Source: Chrysochromulina parva (taxonomy: Eukaryota > Haptophyta > Prymnesiales > Chrysochromulinaceae). Taken from it: DNA of 10,975 nt. The stretch is from NCBI GenBank assembly GCA_002887195.1, contig PJAB01002016.1:1-10975 (forward strand), in the 5' to 3' direction. The first letter of the stretch is position 1, and the number at the start of each line of letters is the position of its first letter. Positions 1-10,600 of this stretch are shown piece by piece. The translations under genes were made by a program, and so were the position numbers. Under the pieces are notes generated by a model. It did not search any database and was not told the DNA's origin. It saw only the letters and a list, made by a program, of their open reading frames with translations.

Positions 1-550
1 ATAGGTCGCACTTTATGTGCCTTGGGTCACCCTCCTGTTTGCACTTGATGTGCATTGACTGCGAGTCGGGTAGTCGGTCTCGGACCGACGCGATGCGATG
101 ACCTCTACGGAGCAGTCGTGTTAATCCGCAGTGCGTCACTATCCGGCACTTTAAGTGCGTAGACACCCTCCTGTTTGCACTTCATGTGCATATTTGACTG
201 TGAGTCGGGTAGTCGGTTTCATACCGACGCGATGCGATACCATCTACGGAGCGATCGCATCAATCCGCAGTGCGTCATAGGTCGGTCGCACTTCATGTGC
301 GCGTCACCCTTGTGTTCACTCGGGGCACTTTACGTGTTTCTTCTGACGCATTGATTGCGAGTCGAGTAGTCGGTCTCGGACCGACGCGATGCGACGACCT
401 CTACGGAGTCAATCCGCACTTCCGCAGTGCATCAAAAGGTCGGTCGCACCAAGATTGAGGTCACTCCTGTTTGCACTTTATGTGCATGACTGCGAGTATG
501 ACGGAGTTTGTCATACCCTCTTGTTTTGTTTCAGCTTTCACTTTATGTGC
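1..550. repeat. Decayed tandem repeat, unit about 138-155 bp, three to four copies
   Basis: Copies start near 1, 139, 277 and 433. Each of the first three holds, in order, a GCACTTNATGTGC-like palindrome, a CACCCTCCTGTTTGCAC-like stretch, GAGTCGGGTAGTCGGT, ACCGACGCGATGCGA, CTACGGAG and AATCCGCAGTGCGTC. The fourth copy loses the middle. The 13-nt palindrome appears at 8-20, 41-53, 146-158, 177-189, 288-300, 325-337 (one end changed), 473-485 and 539-550 (first base lost). A second inverted repeat, GTCGGTC-tcg-GACCGAC, lies at 73-89 and 369-385; at 212-228 it keeps a 6-bp stem with a changed loop. Short ORFs across it show no domain, so I read it as non-coding satellite-like DNA. Confidence 0.85.
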
Positions 551-765
551 TCCCACGCCACCAGACACATCGCGCTCTAACATGACCAGACACAACCTTT
601 ACGCACTTCAAATTTTCGGTTCACCCGTTCAAACACATGTTCCGCCAAATGAGAGGTGATCCCAGGTTTTTCAGTATAAACCAGGTTTACAGTACCTTGC
701 TAATCACAAGGCAGCCTCCAGTATCTGCCAAGGGAGCTGAGCCCGACGAGAATCGTGTTGAAAGC
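551..765. other. Non-coding stretch downstream of the AP2/GARP gene
   Basis: No credible ORF. It is less GC-rich than the genes and would hold the 3' UTR of the gene ending at 766. CCAGGTTT occurs twice (662 and 681). The only protein-like trace is the AP2 scrap at 699-740. No convincing polyadenylation signal was found. Confidence 0.5.
699..740 (-). pseudogene. Degenerate AP2-domain fragment
   Basis: Read on the minus strand, this stretch resembles the part of AP2 domain 1 that encodes 'LGSFATPEEAALC' (1373-1417). Shared words are CTC(A/G)GCTCC, GGAGG and GCCTTGTG. In one frame it gives 'LEAAL' and then a TGA where the intact domain has Cys. It lies past the stop codon of the AP2/GARP gene, so it looks like the remains of an AP2 module left by tandem duplication. 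The match is short and could be partly chance. Confidence 0.4.
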
Positions 766-3627
766 TCAATCGTGGGCGGAATCGCTCGTACTGGCGTCGA
801 GCCCGAGCCCGAGCGTGTCGCCCTCGTCACGCTGCTTCGCTAGGAGAATACGGTACTTTTGAAGGTGGCTCTTGATGTTTGAGCGAGTCGGGAGCCCGGT
901 CGCTTCCGGAGCGAGCCGTGCCAACTCTTCGGCGATCTTCTGTGGTTTGGCCGAGTCGATGCCGATGGCATGCACCACCTTGCAGAAGCGCTGATGCACC
1001 TCCTTTGACCAGATGAAGCGCTGCTTCTTCTCGCCGCCCTCTTCGTCGTTAACGTCGCCACACGCTGTTGAATCGTGAGCGGAATCGCTCGTACCGGCGC
1101 CGAGACCGTCAGTAACCCTGTTTTTCTTTGCCATCCATAAAGCAGCCTCCCACGGTGTCCTGAAGCTCCTAGAGCTGCAGTGATTGCGCTTGCTCGAATC
1201 CCACATCTTCACTCGGTAACTGCCATTTTCCTTGTACACATTCTTGAAGCCTGTAAGACTTGTCGCCGACGTCACGAGTGTAAGTCCCTCCGCCGCTGCC
1301 GCTACCCTGACCTCGTCCTCTGTGAGCGGCTCCGCGGCCTCCGCCGCTGCTTGCTCTACCCCTATGTAACTCGCGTAACACAAGGCTGCCTCCTCCGGCG
1401 TCGCGAAGGAGCCGAGGTGGCGATAAGTGCCATTCTTCCATATCTGCACGTAGTATCCATAGCCATCAGACTTGTTCACCACATACTTGAAGCCTGTCCT
1501 ATTTGTCGCCGACGTCACGAGGTTAAGTCCCTCGGCCGCCGCCGCGGCCCTGACAAGCTCTGCGTTGGACATCTGTGCGACAATGTTTGCCGCGGCTGCG
1601 CGAGTTTCGCCACGAACTCGCACAAGGTGGGAGATTGCGATTCCAATACGCCCTTCCTTCGACATCAACACCACAGCCCGGCAAGCGTCCTCCCGCAACT
1701 TGCCGTGGTTGATCAGGCGGCCAATCATCTCGCCTTCTCGGCTCGCCATCTCCGCCTCCGCCTTGAGCTCCGCCGCCGTCATTTGCATGATCGCCGCCCG
1801 AGCCTCGTCCTGTGTTTGTCCTAGGCGCAGCCGGCGGCCGAGCACACCGTCATCTCCAAGGTTCTCGAGCAACCGTGCCTTCCACTCAGCAAGGCGGCTC
1901 CCGGCCCTTTGTATCGCCTTGGCCTTCCAGGCCTGTAGATCGGGCGGCAGGGCATGGCCAGAAGACTCATACCCGCGGATCTGAATCCACTTTGCGGCGA
2001 TCGCCGCGCCGCCCGCGACCCCGCCTCGAGTGCCAAAGCACACAGGAAGCGCGGCCACCTCGGCCAAGGACCTCATCGGTGTGAAGAGGGTGCCGGGTGC
2101 CGCAAGGCCCCACCCAATCATGGACTCGAGGGCGGCGCGCATCAGGGCCTCGCCAGCCACCTCGAAGCCACTGAGGGCCACTTTGACGGAGAATGCCGGC
2201 GAGCTGGCGTCGCCACCTGCCTGGTGCTTGGCGCCCCCGCCGCCATGGTTACTGGAAAGGAAGCCAGAGTGGGGCATTGAATACACCCAGAACCCGGGGT
2301 GGAGAATGTGGATGGCTTCCATCATTGTGTCCCGTTGCCGGGTAAAGTATCCGCCAAACTTGAGAAAGAGTTTGGCGGTGCCGTGCCAGGGCGGTACGGG
2401 CGGCACGGGGGGCACAGGCGGCGGCGGCACATGCGGCGGTGGCGGTGGCGGTGGTGGTGGTGGCGGCGGCGGTGGTGGTGGTGGTGGTGGTGGTGGCGGT
2501 GGTGGTGGTGGCAGCGGTGGCGGCGGCGGTTGAAGTGGGAGGAGTGGCTGCTGTGGGGGCAACAGTGCATTCGCGGCAGCTTGCACAGCGGCGGCGGCAT
2601 TGGCGGCGGCGGCGGCGGCGGCGGCGGCGTTGGCACCTGCGGCTGCAGCGGCGGCCATCGCGGCAGCTGCACCGGCAGGGGCAGCAACGTAGGCGGCGAG
2701 GGCAGCGGCCATCGCTGCTGCTGCAGCGTTTGCAGCGGCAACAGAGGCCGCTTGGAGCTGCGCGGCGTTGGCTTGGAGGGCCTGCAGCTGCGCTGGAGGT
2801 GGCAACGGTGGTGGAGGTGGCAGTGGCGGCGGCGGGGGGGGAGATGGCGACGGAGGTGCTGAGGGAGGAGGCGGTGGTGATGGTGCCAGCACATCCTCAA
2901 ACTCCAACTCCAACTCATAGTCTGAGTCATCGGTCTGATGTTCCGCGTCTGAATCATCGTCTGATGGCGGTGGTGGTGGCATGGTGGGCATCGGCTGTGG
3001 AGATGGTGGTGGTGGTGCCGTGGGACGACCGCAGTCATGATGCATCGTCATTCGGGCCCCCGCAGAGTACACCAGTACCCGTCGGACGGCGGCCCCGGCC
3101 TCCAGCAAGCTGTTGCTGAGGATCCCCTGCCGCAGCCTGGTTTGCTCATGTACCTTCACATCCATTGAAAGGTACGCGTTCTCCCATGAGTTCTTCCGTC
3201 CCCTTCTGAAGCTAGTCTCATCTTCACTTCCAGTCTCGCAGCGCTTACCACCCGTCATGTCGTCTACCATGGCTTCGAAGTTCGAAACCACGGTAAAAGG
3301 TGGTGCGGTGGGCACGGCCTCGTGGAGAAGCCACGCCACGAATCCGAGTTCTCCTGAGATGGTGTAGACCTTGATGATAGTGACCTTTTGGCCACCGTCG
3401 AGAATGATCTCATCGGTAGGAAGAGGAGGAGGATTTGTGGCCCAAAAGTCACGAAAGTAGCTTAAAAGTAGTTCAAATGGATTGGGTGGCGGCGTGGATA
3501 GGGGTGGGATAGGGGGCGGCGATGATGATGATGACCGTGGTGAGGGTGGCGGCGAGGGTGGTGGAGAGGGCGGCGGTGAGATGGGTGACATAGTCGGCAA
3601 AGTCGGCAAAGTCGGCAAAGTCGGCAT
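766..3627 (-). CDS. Proline/alanine-rich protein with two AP2 domains and a GARP (Myb-like) domain; putative DNA-binding regulator
   Basis: One uninterrupted frame, 953 codons from the first in-frame ATG (3627-3625) to the TGA at 766-768. Seen in order: a (PTL)n start and Pro/Ser runs; an unrecognised segment with 'DEIILDGGQKVTI'; an acidic stretch ('DDDSDAEHQTDDSDYELE'); an Ala-rich tract (about residues 283-356); a pure proline run (about 367-411); an unrecognised region; AP2-like domain 1 (about 705-757, 'TGFKYV', 'LGSFATPEEAALCYASYIG'); AP2-like domain 2 (about 785-840, 'TGFKNV', 'FRTPWEAALWMAKK'); and a GARP domain (about 869-930, 'RFIWSKEVHQRF' to 'SHLQKYR'). Each AP2 domain follows a module like 'AAAAAEGL-LVTSAT'. 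AP2 and GARP domains bind DNA, so a nuclear transcription factor is inferred. The frame is open to 4269 but has no ATG there, so the true N-terminus, or an upstream exon, is uncertain. Unlike its neighbour it has no visible introns. Confidence 0.75.
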   Translation of the reverse strand: MPTLPTLPTLPTMSPISPPPSPPPSPPPSPRSSSSSPPPIPPLSTPPPNPFELLLSYFRDFWATNPPPLPTDEIILDGGQKVTIIKVYTISGELGFVAWLLHEAVPTAPPFTVVSNFEAMVDDMTGGKRCETGSEDETSFRRGRKNSWENAYLSMDVKVHEQTRLRQGILSNSLLEAGAAVRRVLVYSAGARMTMHHDCGRPTAPPPPSPQPMPTMPPPPPSDDDSDAEHQTDDSDYELELEFEDVLAPSPPPPPSAPPSPSPPPPPPLPPPPPLPPPAQLQALQANAAQLQAASVAAANAAAAAMAAALAAYVAAPAGAAAAMAAAAAAGANAAAAAAAAANAAAAVQAAANALLPPQQPLLPLQPPPPPLPPPPPPPPPPPPPPPPPPPPPPPPPPHVPPPPVPPVPPVPPWHGTAKLFLKFGGYFTRQRDTMMEAIHILHPGFWVYSMPHSGFLSSNHGGGGAKHQAGGDASSPAFSVKVALSGFEVAGEALMRAALESMIGWGLAAPGTLFTPMRSLAEVAALPVCFGTRGGVAGGAAIAAKWIQIRGYESSGHALPPDLQAWKAKAIQRAGSRLAEWKARLLENLGDDGVLGRRLRLGQTQDEARAAIMQMTAAELKAEAEMASREGEMIGRLINHGKLREDACRAVVLMSKEGRIGIAISHLVRVRGETRAAAANIVAQMSNAELVRAAAAAEGLNLVTSATNRTGFKYVVNKSDGYGYYVQIWKNGTYRHLGSFATPEEAALCYASYIGVEQAAAEAAEPLTEDEVRVAAAAEGLTLVTSATSLTGFKNVYKENGSYRVKMWDSSKRNHCSSRSFRTPWEAALWMAKKNRVTDGLGAGTSDSAHDSTACGDVNDEEGGEKKQRFIWSKEVHQRFCKVVHAIGIDSAKPQKIAEELARLAPEATGLPTRSNIKSHLQKYRILLAKQRDEGDTLGLGLDASTSDSAHD
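768..1104 (-). repeat. 34-nt direct repeat flanking the GARP domain
   Basis: Positions 768-801 and 1071-1104 match at 31 of 34 bases. They encode 'AGTSDSAHD' before the GARP domain and 'ASTSDSAHD' at the extreme C-terminus, so the GARP-coding segment is bracketed by a duplicated Ser/Asp linker. Tandem duplication or insertion of the GARP module would leave this pattern. Confidence 0.7.
2395..2530 (-). repeat. Polyproline-coding trinucleotide tract
   Basis: On the plus strand this is an almost unbroken run of GGT/GGC, read on the minus strand as CCN proline codons. Copies such as GTGGCGGT show slippage-prone structure. The plus strand is rich in GG pairs and could form G-quadruplexes. Confidence 0.9.
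2560..2790 (-). repeat. Polyalanine-coding tract
   Basis: GCN-rich region on the minus strand encoding long Ala runs with scattered Asn, Gln and Met. It reads as low complexity in every frame. It separates the acidic and polyproline parts of the AP2/GARP protein. Confidence 0.85.
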
Positions 3628-3655
3628 AGTCGTCAAAGTCGGCAAAGAGGCACCC
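3590..3655 (-). repeat. 9-nt minisatellite coding for (PTL)n
   Basis: Plus-strand unit GTCGGCAAA repeated about six times with small changes (GTCGGCATA, GTCGTCAAA). The first ATG of the AP2/GARP frame, at 3627-3625, lies inside it and arises from a GGCATA variant, which weakens confidence in that start. Confidence 0.85.
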
Positions 3656-3719
3656 GTCGGTCTGGGGCTGTTCAGTCCCGACGGGCGAGGTTGGTTATCA
3701 CCGCTTTTAGAAGAGAAGT

Positions 3720-4215
3720 TGGTGACGACGGTGGCGGTGATGGCAAGGGCAATGGCGGTGAGGGCGGTGAGGTAGAGGGTGGCCAGGGTGGTTGTTGCGG
3801 TGGAGATGATGGTGAGGGCAGCGAGGGCGGCGGAGGAGGTGATGGTTACAAGGGCGGCGATGGCGAGGAAGGTTAGGGTGGGGGCGGCAAGGGCAAGGGC
3901 GTGAGCGGCGAGGGCACGCGCGCGGACGGAGAGGGAGAGGGCGAGGGCGGCGAGGGTGGTGAGGGTGGGGCAGGCAAAGGCGAGGGCGGCGAGGGCGAGG
4001 GCGGCGAAGGTGAAGGCGGCGAGGGCGAGGGCGGCGATGGTGAAGGTGCGGGGGGCGGTGAGGGTGAGGGCGGTGAGGGCGAGGACGGCCAGGGCGGCAA
4101 AGGCTGGGGTGGTGAAGGCGATGGCAGTGGGGGTGAGGGTGGAGGTGGCAAGGGCGGCGAAGGCGGGAGTGGCAAACAAGGCGAGGGCGGCGGCGAAGGT
4201 GGTGAGGGAGGAGAA
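3720..4215. repeat. GC-rich minisatellite of GGCGAGGGC-like 9-mers
   Basis: The plus strand is built of GAGGGCGGC / GGTGAGGGC words, cleanest at 3880-4210. It is open in several frames: Gly/Glu repeats on plus, and an Ala/Leu/Thr hydrophobic run on minus continuous with the AP2/GARP frame. No ATG lies in the minus frame here. It may be coding, a 5' UTR, or an intron; the sequence does not decide. Confidence 0.75.
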
Positions 4216-4269
4216 GGTGAGTGTGGCCGTCAGGATACGCCGTCGCCTTTTTTGTAGACTCTGTGACAG

Positions 4270-4618: not shown

Positions 4619-7600
4619 CTGATGAGCGATGCAATCCAATGAATGATGAGGGAGGCAATCTGGTTAATGCGAGGCCATCAGAGGGCATCAGAGGCCAGGC
4701 CATCAGACGCATCAGATCATGAGGGTTTGACGAACCTTGTGAGGAGCCAATGCGCCGAGGCGGCGGCTTTCTTCGCCGACTCGGCCCTGTCGCCTTCGAG
4801 ACACGAAGGGGTGCGCTGTGGTGAGCACTTTGCAGGCAAGGCGGGTGCACAGAGGCCATCCTCGTGATTCGCGGGTCATGCACGTACCTTGGCGTAGCGC
4901 CACGTATGCGATGCCCCCAGCCTGGGCAGCGGCGCTCTGGTTGGCCTGGTTGTCGCGCGCGAGCTCGGAGAGAGCAGAGGTCGCGCGGGCCTTAACCTGA
5001 TGAGGGATGCAATTCGAGGCCACCAGAGGTCATCAGAGGCCATCAGCGATCATCAGCGGTCATCAGAGGTTTTTATCAGCACCACACCTGTACATGCACG
5101 TCCTCCGATGAGAGCAGGTCATCAGAGGTCATCAGAGGTCATCAGCGCGCGGTCATCAGTACACCTGCGCGTGCATGTCCTCTGATGAGAGCATCGAGCA
5201 CAGAGGCTGCATCCCACTGGCCGCTGCTATCGCCTCTCCCTCGGTGGAGCTGCCGGCGAGGTGCCAGAGCGTGCGCGCTGCCGCCGCGTGCGTCGCCAAG
5301 TTGCCCTTTGAGAGAAGCTCGATGAGGAGAGGGCGGCCATTCGAGCGCGTGATGAGACCTGTGGGGAAGCAGAGGAGACGTCGTGGTGAGCCCTGGCATA
5401 CTGAGGGGAGGGATGCCATTCGGAGCGCAGCGCGTGAGGAGCCCTTGGATGTTCGCAGAGGCAATCAGAGGCAATCAAATGCAATCATTTAGGTGCAATG
5501 AGATGAGACCTTGGAGCGGCTCATTTTTGGTGGCCGTGGCGAGCAATGCGGAGGTCGCCTCGCGCGGCGCGTCAGCGTTGTAACCACCCTTGGCGCTCGA
5601 ATCGAAGCCACCGGCAAGCCACATGATCAGAGGCGGCGGCACGCCCCCAGCCTTGGCGATTGCGACTTGGTTCGCCTGGGCAATTAGAGGCCAATCATGG
5701 GCAATTAGAGGCCAATCATGGGCAATTAGAGGCAATCAGTGGCACTTAGAGGTAATCAGGGGCCAATCAAAGGCCATCAGGCACACTACCTGGTTGCCCG
5801 CGGACAGCTTGGAGACTGAGCATAGGACGCCATTTACCTGTGCGGAGATGATCTTGATGAGAAGCAGTGATGAGGGATGCAATCAGAGCGTGCACTCCGA
5901 GCATAATCACCGTGACGAGAAGCAGTGATGAGGGATGCAATCAGAGCGTGCACTCCGAGCATAGTCACCGTGAGGAGAGCAGTGATGAGGGATGCAATCA
6001 GAGCGTGCACTCCGAGCATAATCACCTTGAGGAGAGCAGTGATGAGGGATGCAATCAGAGCGTGCACTCAGAGCACAATCACCGTGACGAGCGTGCCGCC
6101 ACGCATGGGGCCTCCGGTGGGCAAGATGCCGAAGACGTGAGGGTCCTCGTAGTACCTAATGAGGCATGCAATTCGTACGCAATTAATGGCCATCGGAGAC
6201 AATCAGATGCAATCAGATGCAATCAGATGCAATCAGATGCAATCAGATGCAATCAGATGCAATCAGAGAGGTCTCGAGCTAGGCAACGTACGTGAAGCCA
6301 CTCCCACTAAGTGGTCTGAGGTAGTGGTGGGTGTTGAGGGCGAGGCTGAAGTCGGAGACCCCGGGGGCGAACAACGTAGGTTCTTTGACGAGCCCGTACC
6401 CCCGGACAGTGATGAGCGTGCCGCCCTCTACCGGCCCTCCTGTGGGGAAGATGGAGAGGAAGGACTGCTGGTAGTACCGGTAGATGGCGGGGGGGCGGGC
6501 GGAGAGGAAGTGCTCGCCATTGAGGGCGATGGTCAACTGTGGAAGGGTGGGCGCCGTAGTGAGCGTGTGCATGCATGGGAGAGGGAGTGCTCGCTATTGA
6601 GGGCGATGGTCACCTGCCAACAGAGAGGAACTCAGCGGGCACTCAGCGGGCACTCAGAAGGCAATCAGAAGGCACTCAGAGGGCACTCAGAGGGCACTCA
6701 GAGGGCACACAAAGGGTACTCCGAGATGGCAATTGTCACCTCAACCTCCGCCGTGCCACCCACGCCCACGAGATCGACATCTGGAGCGACGAGATCGAAA
6801 TCTGGAGCAATGCAGCGTACAAGCGTGCCTGCGCCGCTCCCACCCCAGCTTGCAACGCCTCCATCGCCTCCATCGCCTCCGCCGTCTCCGCCGCCTCCGC
6901 CGCCGCTGCTGCTACCGGTAGCACCGTTGCTGCCTTCTCCGCTCGTGACCGGTAGGAAGACGTCGAGAGTGCCAAATGCATGCATGCTCGTACCTAATTA
7001 GGGTTTGAGGTAGGGTAGGGGGGATGAGCACATCGAGAGCGCGCCTTGTCGGTGCATGCATGCATGGCTCGTACCGGCAGTTGCTGCCGTTGACGAACCC
7101 GCTGATGAGGCGCCGTCATCAGTCGAGGAGGGAGGGGGCTCGGGCGCTCGGGGCGGGTACGGCGGCGCTCGGGGCAGCGCGGTGCCGCTCAGCTCGATCG
7201 AGATCACTTGGGTGATGACGGTGCCGAACTTGCAACGCGCCGTCGCGAGCGTCGACGCGCCGAGGACATCGAAGCCGAAGCCGGTCACCGCCACGCTCGT
7301 GTTCGCCGCCTCCGAGGCGGTGCCCGGGACGGCACGGTCCTCGGCAGCAGCAGCGGCGGCGGCGGCGGCGGCGGCGGGTGTGCTTGGGGTGCAACACGGC
7401 TCATCGCCGCGCAGTGCCGGACCGGCGCGCGGCCAGAACGTGTGCAGCACCTGCTCATAGTAGCGGAAGTAGAGGCAATTAGAGGTCATCAGAGGTCATT
7501 CGAGGTCATCAGAGGTCATTCGAGGCGAGCACCTGCTCATAGTAGCGGAAGTAGAAGTAGCTGCCGTTGAATATCGCCCGCAGCGACGTGGTCCGATTGG

Positions 7601-10600
7601 CACTCAACACGGCACGCAGCCACGGCCGGTAGGGCCCGATCGATGTGGAAGCGAGGAGGACGAAACCGTCGTCCTCGGGATGGTCCCAAGTGGGCATGAG
7701 CTCGAGCGTCATGTTGGGCACGTGCGGCGGGAAGGGCACCAGCGCCTGCGACGTGTGATGAGGGGGGTACTCAGCAGAATGCAAGTGCACTCGGCTACCG
7801 TGGTACTCAGCGGCGATCACCTCATCAGGGCTCATCAGAGCTCATCTGGGCTCATCACGGAGGGCTCATCAAGGGAGGGCTCATCAGGGCTCATCATCAG
7901 GGCTCATCATCAGGGCTCATCAGAGCCGCGCGCACTTCCAAGAAGAGCTCATCGCGCGTCGTCCTGGTCGTGAGCACGCGCGTCGTCCTCGAGCTGCACT
8001 CGAGCACGCCTTGCGAGATCAAGAGCACGCGCACCTGTGGGGAAGGGTGAGACGCCGTGGTGAGCGCATGCATGTGCGGGAGCGCAGTCATGAGCGCATG
8101 CATGCGCTGGGCGCGCGCGAGCCGTCGCGAGCGCATGCATGCACGCATGCATGAGCGAGGCCCACAAGCCTGCGCACCTCGTCGTCGGCCATGGTCGTCG
8201 GCGCGCCCAGGGCATCCGTCAGTTGATCTCCGGCAGAAAACGAAAGCCCGAGCGCCGCTGAGATGACCTGCCTGAGCTGTTCGGTGGCGTCGGAGGCGCT
8301 TAGGAGGAGGATAGTGAGGACGGGCGGCAGGTAAGCCTCGGTCGCGTTCGTCAAGTTCGAACCGTCGAAGAAGAGAAGCTCTCGCGGAGAGTAGAAGTCC
8401 TGATGGGAGGGGACATCAGCGGTCATCAAAGGCCCTCAGGGATCATCATGGGTCTGCGGGCGCATGATTTTTCGTCACTCCATGAGGTTTCGTCACTCGA
8501 TCAGGTTTCATCGCTCAATGAGGTTTCGTCACTCGATCAGGTTTCATCACCCACCTGCCCATTGACGGAGAATTCCACAAGAGCGCTCCCCTGCCGACCG
8601 GGCGGCAAGAGGCACACCGCATACGTGGGGCCCACCGCCACCGCTGGAGCCGCCACGCCGCCGGCTTGACACAACGTGAGAAGACCAACGTGAGGAGATC
8701 GCACCTCGTAGCCCGGCCGTGCGCTCAGGTGATTCCACAGGTCGCGTGAGCCCTCAGGCGCCGTATCGGGCAGCCTCGAGGGCATCATCCAGCGACGCCC
8801 GTCATGCGAGTGGTCGGCGATGGCGCGCACCTGTGGGGAAGCGAGGACATTGGACTTGAAGTCATCAGGCGTCATCAGGCGTCATCAGGCGTCATCAGGC
8901 GTCATCAGGCGTCATCAGGCGTCATCAGGCGTCATCAGGCGTCATCAGGCGTCATCAGGCGTCATCAGGCGTCATCAGGCGTCATCAGTGCGCACCTCGA
9001 CGGAGGCTTCGCCTCCAACTGACGAGCTCACGCACGAAAAGAGATCGATCCGGATCTTGAGCTTGGGCATGTGCTCCGGCACGGAGTCCTGGAACTGCTC
9101 GAGGCGCGACTTGAACCACTCGACCTGCGGGGCGCATGCGGCCTCGAGCACCGCACTTGAACGGTCGCGCCGCTCCGCGGACATCAGCAGATCTTCGCCC
9201 TTGGTCATGACGGGGATGACGGTCGTGTTCGGGGCACCCAGGCGCAATGCGTTGAGCCAGCGGCCGACATAGAGCTCGTACATCGTCTTCAGGATGGATA
9301 CATCGAGCGCGGGCACGACGAGCAGGTAGACCGAGCCGTCGCACAGGTACGGCTGTAGCACGGACCCATAGTCCTTTCCACCAGACAGGTCCCACATGGT
9401 GAAAACCCCTTGCGAGTCCGCCTCGCCGATGAGCGCGGACGAGACGCTGATGTGACCAGACAGCGAGTACGAGAGGTCGCGCATGTGCTGCTCGAGCTGC
9501 TTGAGAGCCTTGGTGAGCACCTGTGGGGAAGTGAGCGAGGGAAGGCGCCGTGATGAGCGCGCAGACTGGGCGCCGTGGTGGGCGCGCATCTTGGGCGCCG
9601 TGTTGAGCACATGCATGCTGGGCGTACGCGTACTGTCTTGCCTGACTGAGCGTGCCCGACAGTCAATCAGTGGCAATCCGTGGCAATCCGTGGCAATCCG
9701 TGGCAATCAGTGGCAATCCGTGGCAATCAACGTACCATCTTGCCCAACTGAGCATGCCCGAGGATGCACACGCGCGCTCCATAGTATTTCATCGAACCTT
9801 GCATCAGCTTCTCCTGGATGAATTTACGCACGGCTCTGATGCCCTGCCGTGCAGTGGACGTGGGCGGCCGTTGGAATGCCTTGATGGCGGCCTCACGTGG
9901 CGCCGTGCCGGGCTCGAGGGCAAACAAGGCGTCGAAATTGGCCGGAACGGCCTCGCCCGCCTTGGGGGTGAGCGCGGCCGAGGTGCTCGACACGACGCCG
10001 AGCAAGTCCACGTGGATGACCAACGGCGCGATGGGCTTGGGCGGGCGCACGAGCAACACCTCATGCACGGACAGCTTGAGGCTCACCGAGCCCGGCGCGC
10101 CGCCGCCAGAGCTCTCATTGAGTGTGCGAAGCGCGGCGAGAGCGACCACCGAGACGCTCAGCGTCCCAAGGGTCTCCTTGCCGTTGGGGGAGAGCACGGG
10201 GCGCGGCGCCATGGATGAGAGGTCCTGCCCGGCCGCGAGCAGTGCCCTGAGCGACACGTGGCAGATGCCATACCTGATGAGGGAGGCAATCAGAGGTCAT
10301 CAGAGGTCATCAGAGGTCATCAGAGGTCATCAGAGCACGTCATGTGGCAGACGCCGTACGTCGAGGCGCTGCCGCTTCGGAAAATGGTCTTGACCACGAG
10401 CTGCATCTCGCTCTCCTCCTCATCGGCCGCCTCGAGCGCCGTCGCGAGCTTCACGGCGAGCTTCGAGAGTGGCGCGAGTGTGAAGGACTTGGAGAAGGGG
10501 AATGGGTAGAGGCCTTCGCCGTGCGTGGTCTCCTTCTGAGTCGTCTCCTCGAGCTCGGCCACGCCGAGCATGTCGACGAGCAGCCGCACGCCATGTCGCG

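What the first reader, a model, noticed from the sequence alone, without database searches (positions are those of the whole stretch)
4619..10359. Introns begin with a copy of the following exon's start
The first bases of introns 1 (19 nt, 3 differences), 3 (6), 5 (6), 7 (within the 28-mer), 8 (about 18 with one indel), 9 (about 29, diverged), 13 (8) and 16 (9 of 12) match the start of the exon that follows. Twelve of 16 acceptors read AG|GT. Introns normally share only GT with the next exon. The trend suggests most introns here arose by the same duplication event seen in its fresh form at 7451-7532, at different ages.
Basis: partly seen in the sequence, partly recalled or inferred. Interest (0 to 1): 0.9.

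Follow-up and report, generated by a model that had tools for sequence, protein, structure and literature searches.

The report
Mobile introns flanked by long duplications
In this alga many introns look like copies of small mobile elements that landed inside genes, duplicated roughly 20-40 letters of the gene, and use the duplicated copy as their own start signal for splicing.

Summary
The genome is haptophyte-like. Introns belong to at least two repeated families. Family A ends TGCCTCCCTCATCAG|: 603 exact places followed by GT, control 0. Family B is GCTCACCACGGCGCC..CTTCCCCACAG|: 146 exact places, 127 followed by GT. At 95 fetched B places, 73 have an upstream copy of the following exon's start (score >=12), against 1 of 94 when the same exon is read from +45; for A, 21 of 40 against 1 of 40. 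Copies at 48 B loci are 9-43 nt, median 27, nearly always starting GT. These look like introners that bring the acceptor and take the donor from a target-site duplication. Earlier introner families are described with 3-9 bp duplications (PMC9860276, passages). No terminal inverted repeats. Left ends vary, the right end is fixed: like retroposition, but selection for splicing would do the same. In the window itself 4 of 15 introns carry a clear copy. No RNA data and no clean empty site.

The parts
10274..10359 (-). Intron 1, family A introner with AG end TTGCCTCCCTCATCAG
10338..10359 (-). Copy 1 of the duplicated target (22 nt), at the donor of intron 1
   Evidence: score 12, 0 of 210 mismatched pairs as good
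10252..10273 (-). Copy 2 of the same sequence, start of the next exon
9521..9735 (-). Intron 2, compound; ends CTTCCCCACAG (family B end); no donor copy
8831..8995 (-). Intron 3; 10-bp array GTCATCAGGC and CTTCCCCACAG end; GTGCGC match not above chance
8035..8177 (-). Intron 5, family B end; GTGCGC match not above chance
7451..7532 (-). Intron 7: 54 bases between two copies of a 28-mer; AG|GT in both copies gives both splice sites
7528..7555 (-). 28-nt repeat, first copy
   Evidence: overlapping BLAST pieces
7446..7473 (-). 28-nt repeat, second copy
6994..7074 (-). Intron 8; first 19 nt copy the next exon with one indel
6537..6739 (-). Intron 9, compound: an A-like array, then a B-like insert
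6578..6613 (-). 36-nt copy of the exon start (copy 1) inside intron 9
   Evidence: score 28.5
6537..6577 (-). B-like element between the two copies, ends CTTCCACAG
6501..6536 (-). Copy 2, start of the following exon
5359..5509 (-). Intron 13, family B end; 8-nt match GTCTCATC, borderline
   Evidence: 1 of 210
5855..6091 (-). 57-bp tandem array with A-like repeats within intron 11

Best explanation
The introns are introners: short mobile elements of at least two unrelated families (B inserts mostly about 40-75 nt, by subtraction; A 39-161 nt with its arrays) that insert into exons. Insertion duplicates roughly 20-40 bp of target. The element carries a 3' splice-site module: branch-point-like CTGAT or CTCAC (motif recalled), a pyrimidine run, and CAG at its very end. 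The left copy of the duplicated target begins with GT (sometimes GC), becomes the donor, and is removed with the element; the right copy restarts the exon, so splicing restores the original reading frame. Shown: the families, the long flanking repeats, their register with the splice sites, open joined frames and some unbroken Pfam domains. Inferred: splicing itself, and mobility (no transcript or empty allele seen). How they move is open. Long variable duplications, a fixed right end and ragged left ends with some microhomology resemble target-primed retroposition more than a cut-and-paste transposon with fixed ends.
For: Families: 603 and 127 exact GT-followed places, 0 reversed-pattern controls; 2742 against 5 for A at up to two mismatches. 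Repeats: B 73 of 95 at score >=12 against 1 of 94 for the same exon read from +45; A 21 of 40 against 1 of 40; exons re-paired with other loci 3 of 1184 (B) and 5 of 782 (A). Copy length 9-43 nt, median 27, in 48 single-copy B loci. GT follows 127 of 146 exact B ends. Of 15 non-GT B places fetched, 10 still have the repeat at score >=10; by eye six have a left copy starting GC, each after AG. Joined flanks of the 74 loci (of the first 100) with score >=10: open frame in 53 of 74, while retention would stay open and in frame in 15 of 74. Of 10 joined peptides I picked by eye, bromodomain, FH2, U-box and ferrochelatase pass their Pfam cut-offs across the junction; aldo-keto reductase and ion channel match below theirs; four show nothing relevant. 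No inverted termini: 0 of 43 B, 0 of 18 A. Left boundary spread 5-67 nt, sd 11, in 68 of 89 single-core B loci; microhomology 3.71 against 2.51 nt in 31 loci.
Against: No RNA, and no allele or paralogue lacking an insert was found for the two introns searched (searches show only the C1367 paralogue, which has introns 7 and 9 too). 22 of 95 B and 19 of 40 A places show no copy at score >=12. The fixed right and ragged left ends could reflect selection for a precise acceptor rather than mechanism, and places were picked by that right end. The microhomology measure is biased upwards, because chance matches extend the repeat. 21 of 74 joined flanks are not open (often another intron lies within 90 nt, by eye). 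Some sampled loci are related to each other (for example L081/L094, L100/L139, L040/L134), so counts are not all independent.
Confidence: 0.86

Rival explanations
1. Staggered double-strand breaks repaired by end joining, with short intron-derived DNA captured as filler; the fill-in makes the direct repeats. No dedicated mobile element is needed.
For: Published for Daphnia with 4-12 bp exon repeats (PMC4202315, passages). Ragged left junctions with microhomology and local tandem [repeat+insert] arrays suit break repair.
Against: Hundreds of exact copies of two family ends point to heritable replication of elements; the median repeat (27 nt) is more than twice the longest Daphnia exon repeat.
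Confidence: 0.3
2. Cut-and-paste or MITE-like DNA transposons, as described for Micromonas and Aureococcus introners.
For: Same splicing logic: element brings one splice site, target duplication brings the other (PMC9860276, passages).
Against: No terminal inverted repeats, no fixed left terminus, duplications of variable length and longer than the 3-9 bp described.
Confidence: 0.12
3. Plain tandem duplication of exon sequence containing AG|GT, without an inserted element.
For: Intron 7 (7451-7532): both splice sites lie inside the 28-nt repeat. Tandem [exon start + element] units occur at several loci (C43, C475, C333).
Against: In 48 single-copy B loci with a repeat, a family B core lies between the copies and provides the AG. 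Even intron 7 has a 10-bp-repeat insert.
Confidence: 0.05
4. Chance, shared splice-site consensus or GC-rich coding bias makes intron and exon starts look alike.
For: Short matches such as GTGCGC (introns 3, 5) are of this kind (7 of 210).
Against: Controls with re-paired loci and with the same exon shifted by 45 or 60 nt.
Confidence: 0.01

Closest known systems
Introners of Symbiodinium microadriaticum (PMC9860276, Fig. 2B legend)
   Same: Carry the 3' splice site and take the 5' splice site from the target-site duplication; many copies in genes.
   Different: Those have 4-bp duplications and terminal inverted repeats; here 9-43 nt (median 27) and none found.
Introners of Chrysochromulina sp., a TARA metagenome assembly (PMC9860276, Fig. 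2C legend)
   Same: Also a haptophyte (recalled); target duplication without inverted repeats.
   Different: 4-bp duplication, carries the 5' splice site and takes the 3' one: the reverse arrangement. Whether this very genome is in that survey's supplement could not be checked.
Newly gained introns of Daphnia pulex (PMC4202315)
   Same: Direct repeat of the adjacent exon at the far end of the intron, ascribed to staggered breaks.
   Different: 4-12 bp repeats; no abundant element family in the passages seen.
SINE/LINE retroposons (general knowledge)
   Same: Long target duplications of variable length, ragged 5' ends, fixed 3' end.
   Different: No poly-A or tail seen by eye, much shorter, ends in a splice acceptor; link to a reverse transcriptase untested.

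Membership tests
Introner (mobile intron element) | Near-identical intron sequence at many gene sites | tested here: met
Introner (mobile intron element) | Splices out, restoring the coding frame | tested here: inconclusive
   Sequence only: joined frames open 53 of 74; 4 of 10 picked junction peptides pass a Pfam cut-off. No transcripts.
Introner (mobile intron element) | Insertion shown by an intron-less allele or paralogue | tested here: not met
   No clean empty site for window introns 7 and 9; other loci not searched.
MITE-like DNA-transposon introner | Terminal inverted repeats | tested here: not met
   0 of 43 B and 0 of 18 A with 9 or more of 12
MITE-like DNA-transposon introner | Short target duplication (3-9 bp) | tested here: not met
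   9-43 nt, median 27
Non-LTR retroposon (SINE-like) | Long, variable target duplications | tested here: met
Non-LTR retroposon (SINE-like) | 5' truncation with a constant 3' end | tested here: inconclusive
   the fixed 3' end may come from selection on splicing, and places were picked by it
Non-LTR retroposon (SINE-like) | 3' tail (poly-A or simple repeat) or sequence shared with a LINE | not tested
   No tail seen by eye; RVT_1 has 5 matches in the genome but their 3' ends were not compared.
Intron from AGGT tandem duplication | Both splice sites in the duplicated exon sequence, no insert | tested here: not met
   An insert is present in the single-core loci; intron 7 meets the first half only.

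The most novel reading that the evidence does not exclude
Spliceosomal introns here multiply through RNA: a short intron RNA ending in CAG is copied into staggered nicks in exons by target-primed reverse transcription, giving 20-40 nt duplications, ragged microhomologous 5' junctions and an exact 3' end, with the duplicated exon serving as donor of the new intron.
Probability: 0.33. Interest if true: 0.92.

Novelty: new variant of a known kind. Interest (0 to 1): 0.66.

Why it matters
How introns are gained in bulk is an old question. Previously characterised introner families are described with 3-9 bp duplications, or without any (fungi) (PMC9860276, passages). Families with duplications of about 20-40 nt, no inverted repeats, and identical copies at 26 of 48 measured B loci suggest recent activity by another insertion route, and give a genome in which the target before insertion, the order of events and the relative age of an intron can be read from sequence.

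Tried and rejected
Empty sites: I aligned window 5855-8700 to the paralogue on C1367 and searched the genome with joined exons around introns 7 and 9; only the window and C1367 matched, both with the introns. The one large difference (an extra A-like intron in C1367 near 10979) coincides with a larger loss of exon in the window, so it is no clean empty site.

Terminal inverted repeats: none. Unusual U1 snRNA: one match, 5' end ATACTTACCTG read by eye, the canonical sequence as I recall it, so the GTRCG donors look like ordinary weak sites taken from coding sequence. A pedigree test (does the filler of one intron equal the duplicated target of its source?) gave hints only (L110/L146). Two related loci (L040/L134) have copies closer to their own exon than to the relative's, suggesting homogenisation; unexplained.

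In the 203-kb sample, at score >=12, family A gave 12 of 48 against 0.7% of re-paired cases; family B at my loose motif threshold gave only 5 of 41 against 1.2%, and 7 of 41 against 13% at >=7, because most of those B motif hits look spurious. L051 is an array self-match, not a target duplication, but sits in the A counts and possibly 69. The exon of L081 is cut off by the contig end, so it could not score; it counts as a miss. First script on C1367 failed.

Literature searches. Seen: passages of PMC9860276, PMC7789003 and PMC4202315; abstract and outline of PMC11782384 (direct repeats of 4-30 bp near the borders of 213 introns, mean 11.4); listings for the rest. Huff et al. 2016 (Micromonas, Aureococcus) is recalled. 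In these listings and passages I met no report of introners with duplications of 20-40 nt; supplements were not open to me.
Full report
What was checked. The window is contig C2016 of an unnamed 45.07-Mb, 2199-contig assembly. Among named hits, an HSP70 protein from it is 92% identical to an MMETSP entry whose name is cut to 'Scypho' (Scyphosphaera, my reading), 91% to Emiliania huxleyi, 90% to Tisochrysis and 89% to Diacronema; the best unnamed hits reach 93%, and five longer plant or animal proteins with more bits are only 60-68% identical. The host is therefore a haptophyte, most likely a prymnesiophyte (inference). The gene of the finding lies on the minus strand. Its exons include a Roc-like stretch below the Pfam cut-off and an IPT/TIG domain just above it; armadillo-like repeats are my reading by eye.

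The window itself. A simple gene model plus corrections gives 15 introns. Summed similarity of each intron's start to the next exon's start is 72.5, against a mean of 37.0 (sd 5.6, maximum 69.5) in 20,000 re-pairings; without introns 1 and 8 it is still high (p = 0.001). Four introns are individually convincing: 1 (22 nt), 7 (28-nt repeat), 8 (19 nt with an indel) and 9 (36-nt copy inside a compound intron). Intron 13 is borderline and the hexamers of introns 3 and 5 are not above chance. Ten of 15 introns end in one of two recurring motifs, by eye: CATCAG or CATTAG, and CTTCC(CC)ACAG.

Two families of repeated introns. The 17-mer TGCCTCCCTCATCAGGT occurs 603 times exactly, reversed control 0, and 2742 times with up to two mismatches, control 5; some are tandem copies within one intron. 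TGCCTCCCTCATCAG followed by A, C or T occurs 147 times. GCTCACCACGGCGCC-N0-12-CTTCCCCACAG occurs 146 times, 127 of them followed by GT. Family A is often preceded by 10-bp tandem units such as CTCTGATGAC, by eye; 10 bp is the commonest period in the 203-kb sample (69 of 477 arrays).

The duplication. I fetched 60 B places in listing order, near tandem copies merged; 20 further B places, most chosen for shared inner sequence; 15 of the 19 B places not followed by GT; and 40 A places in listing order, where one place already held, one other place and several tandem pairs of the second twenty were passed over. A copy of the following exon's start upstream of the acceptor (score >=12, 170 nt searched) is present in 48 of 60, 16 of 20, 9 of 15 and 21 of 40. 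The same search with the exon read from +45 gives 1 of 59, 0 of 20, 0 of 15 and 1 of 40. Re-pairing exons and introns between loci gives 3 of 1184 for B and 5 of 782 for A (where 200-300 nt were searched and A reads 22 of 40). In the 48 single-copy B loci with score >=9 the left copy starts G in 44 and has T second in 44; the base before it is G in 39, and +5 is G in 34. Copy length there is 9-43 nt, median 27; introns are 65-112 nt long. The 18 A single-core loci left after dropping L051 have copies of 11-31 nt. The two copies are identical in 26 of 48 B loci. Some loci are related genes or overlapping contig ends, so the counts are not all independent.

Why this is insertion and not coincidence of splice sites. 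The left copy lies inside the intron and the right copy in the exon; removing left copy plus element restores one copy. Of the first 100 loci, 74 have score >=10; their joined flanks have an open frame in 53 of 74, with phases 38, 14 and 22, whereas leaving the intron in would keep an open frame in 15 of 74. Of 10 junction peptides that I picked by eye, four pass the Pfam cut-off across the junction (bromodomain, FH2, U-box, ferrochelatase), two match below it (aldo-keto reductase, ion transport), and four show no relevant family. The FH2 match covers 58 residues to 58 profile positions without net gap. Of the 15 fetched B places not followed by GT, 10 still have the repeat at score >=10. By eye, six of the 15 have a left copy beginning GC, each after AG (L156, L157, L159, L160, L161, L164; in L161 the AG is that of another element), as expected of GC-AG introns (recalled). 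U1 is canonical as recalled.

How they may move. No terminal inverted repeat was found. The left boundary of family B is not fixed: the distance from copy end to the anchor GCTCACC runs from 5 to 67 nt (sd 11) in 68 loci with a clear repeat among 89 single-core B loci, while the right boundary is CACAG by choice of the places. Target ends show microhomology to longer copies (mean 3.71 against 2.51; at least 4 nt in 16 of 31 against 21%). Part of that excess is an artefact, because chance matches lengthen the apparent repeat. Retroposons of the LINE/SINE kind give such junctions (general knowledge), and the genome has five RVT_1 matches; no link between them and the introners was tested. Two cautions: selection for a precise acceptor alone would give a fixed right end and a free left end, and intron 7 of the window lacks the usual end. 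I therefore hold an RNA route at about one in three, and staggered-break repair with filler as the main rival.

Tandem growth. At several loci the unit [copy + element] is repeated, for example five times at C43 and three times at C475. This secondary expansion may explain some longer introns and may homogenise the copies.

What is known. Introners that bring one splice site and take the other from a target duplication are known; previously characterised families are described with 3-9 bp duplications and/or inverted repeats, others with neither (PMC9860276, passages; the lengths in that survey's own families were not in the passages seen, apart from figure examples of 4 and 8 bp). Amoebophrya introners have 3-5 nt direct repeats and inverted repeats (PMC7789003, passages). 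New Daphnia introns have 4-12 bp exon repeats (PMC4202315, passages). A 2025 survey reports repeats of 4-30 bp, mean 11.4, around 213 introns (PMC11782384, abstract). The present families share the logic of the first group and differ in the length and variability of the duplication and in lacking inverted repeats. I could not read supplements, so the genome or its families may already be listed in the 2022 survey.

Verdict. Observation confirmed; interpretation partly supported; a new variant of a known kind. The splicing logic is well supported by sequence; transcripts and empty sites are missing; the way of moving is open.

Noticed in passing
window 5855-6091 and C1367 (L009-L010) 9980-10388: A 57-bp tandem array of an A-like unit lies in intron 11 and differs in copy number between the window and its paralogue.
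   Followed up: partly
L060 (C43:45419-46136), L088 (C475), L061, L056, L079: Tandem units of exon-start copy plus introner, two to five copies and often nearly identical; a possible route of intron growth and copy homogenisation.
   Followed up: partly
L040 (C135) and L134 (C1348): Related introns at related genes whose duplicated copy matches their own exon better than the other gene's exon, as if the two copies were homogenised within each locus.
   Followed up: no
L153 (C1238) and L152 (C1211): The intron start of L153 matches the exon start of L152 over more bases than its own exon, suggesting the exon changed after insertion.
   Followed up: no
L071-L073 and C103:30237, C34:41247: Weak reverse transcriptase (RVT_1) matches in open frames given as 758 to 2709 aa (one with a stop inside); an antisense frame of L071 weakly matches Exo_endo_phos below its cut-off.
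   Followed up: partly
window 1-600: Repeated stretches with CACTTTATGTGC and GGTCGGTCGCACT motifs outside the gene; not identified.
   Followed up: no
window 769-4269, minus strand: A 1167-codon open frame with long simple-repeat stretches (GGT/GGC on the plus strand) and no Pfam match.
   Followed up: no
L156, L157, L159, L160, L161, L164: Introners whose left copy starts GC instead of GT, all after AG, read by eye; natural material for testing GC-AG splicing.
   Followed up: partly
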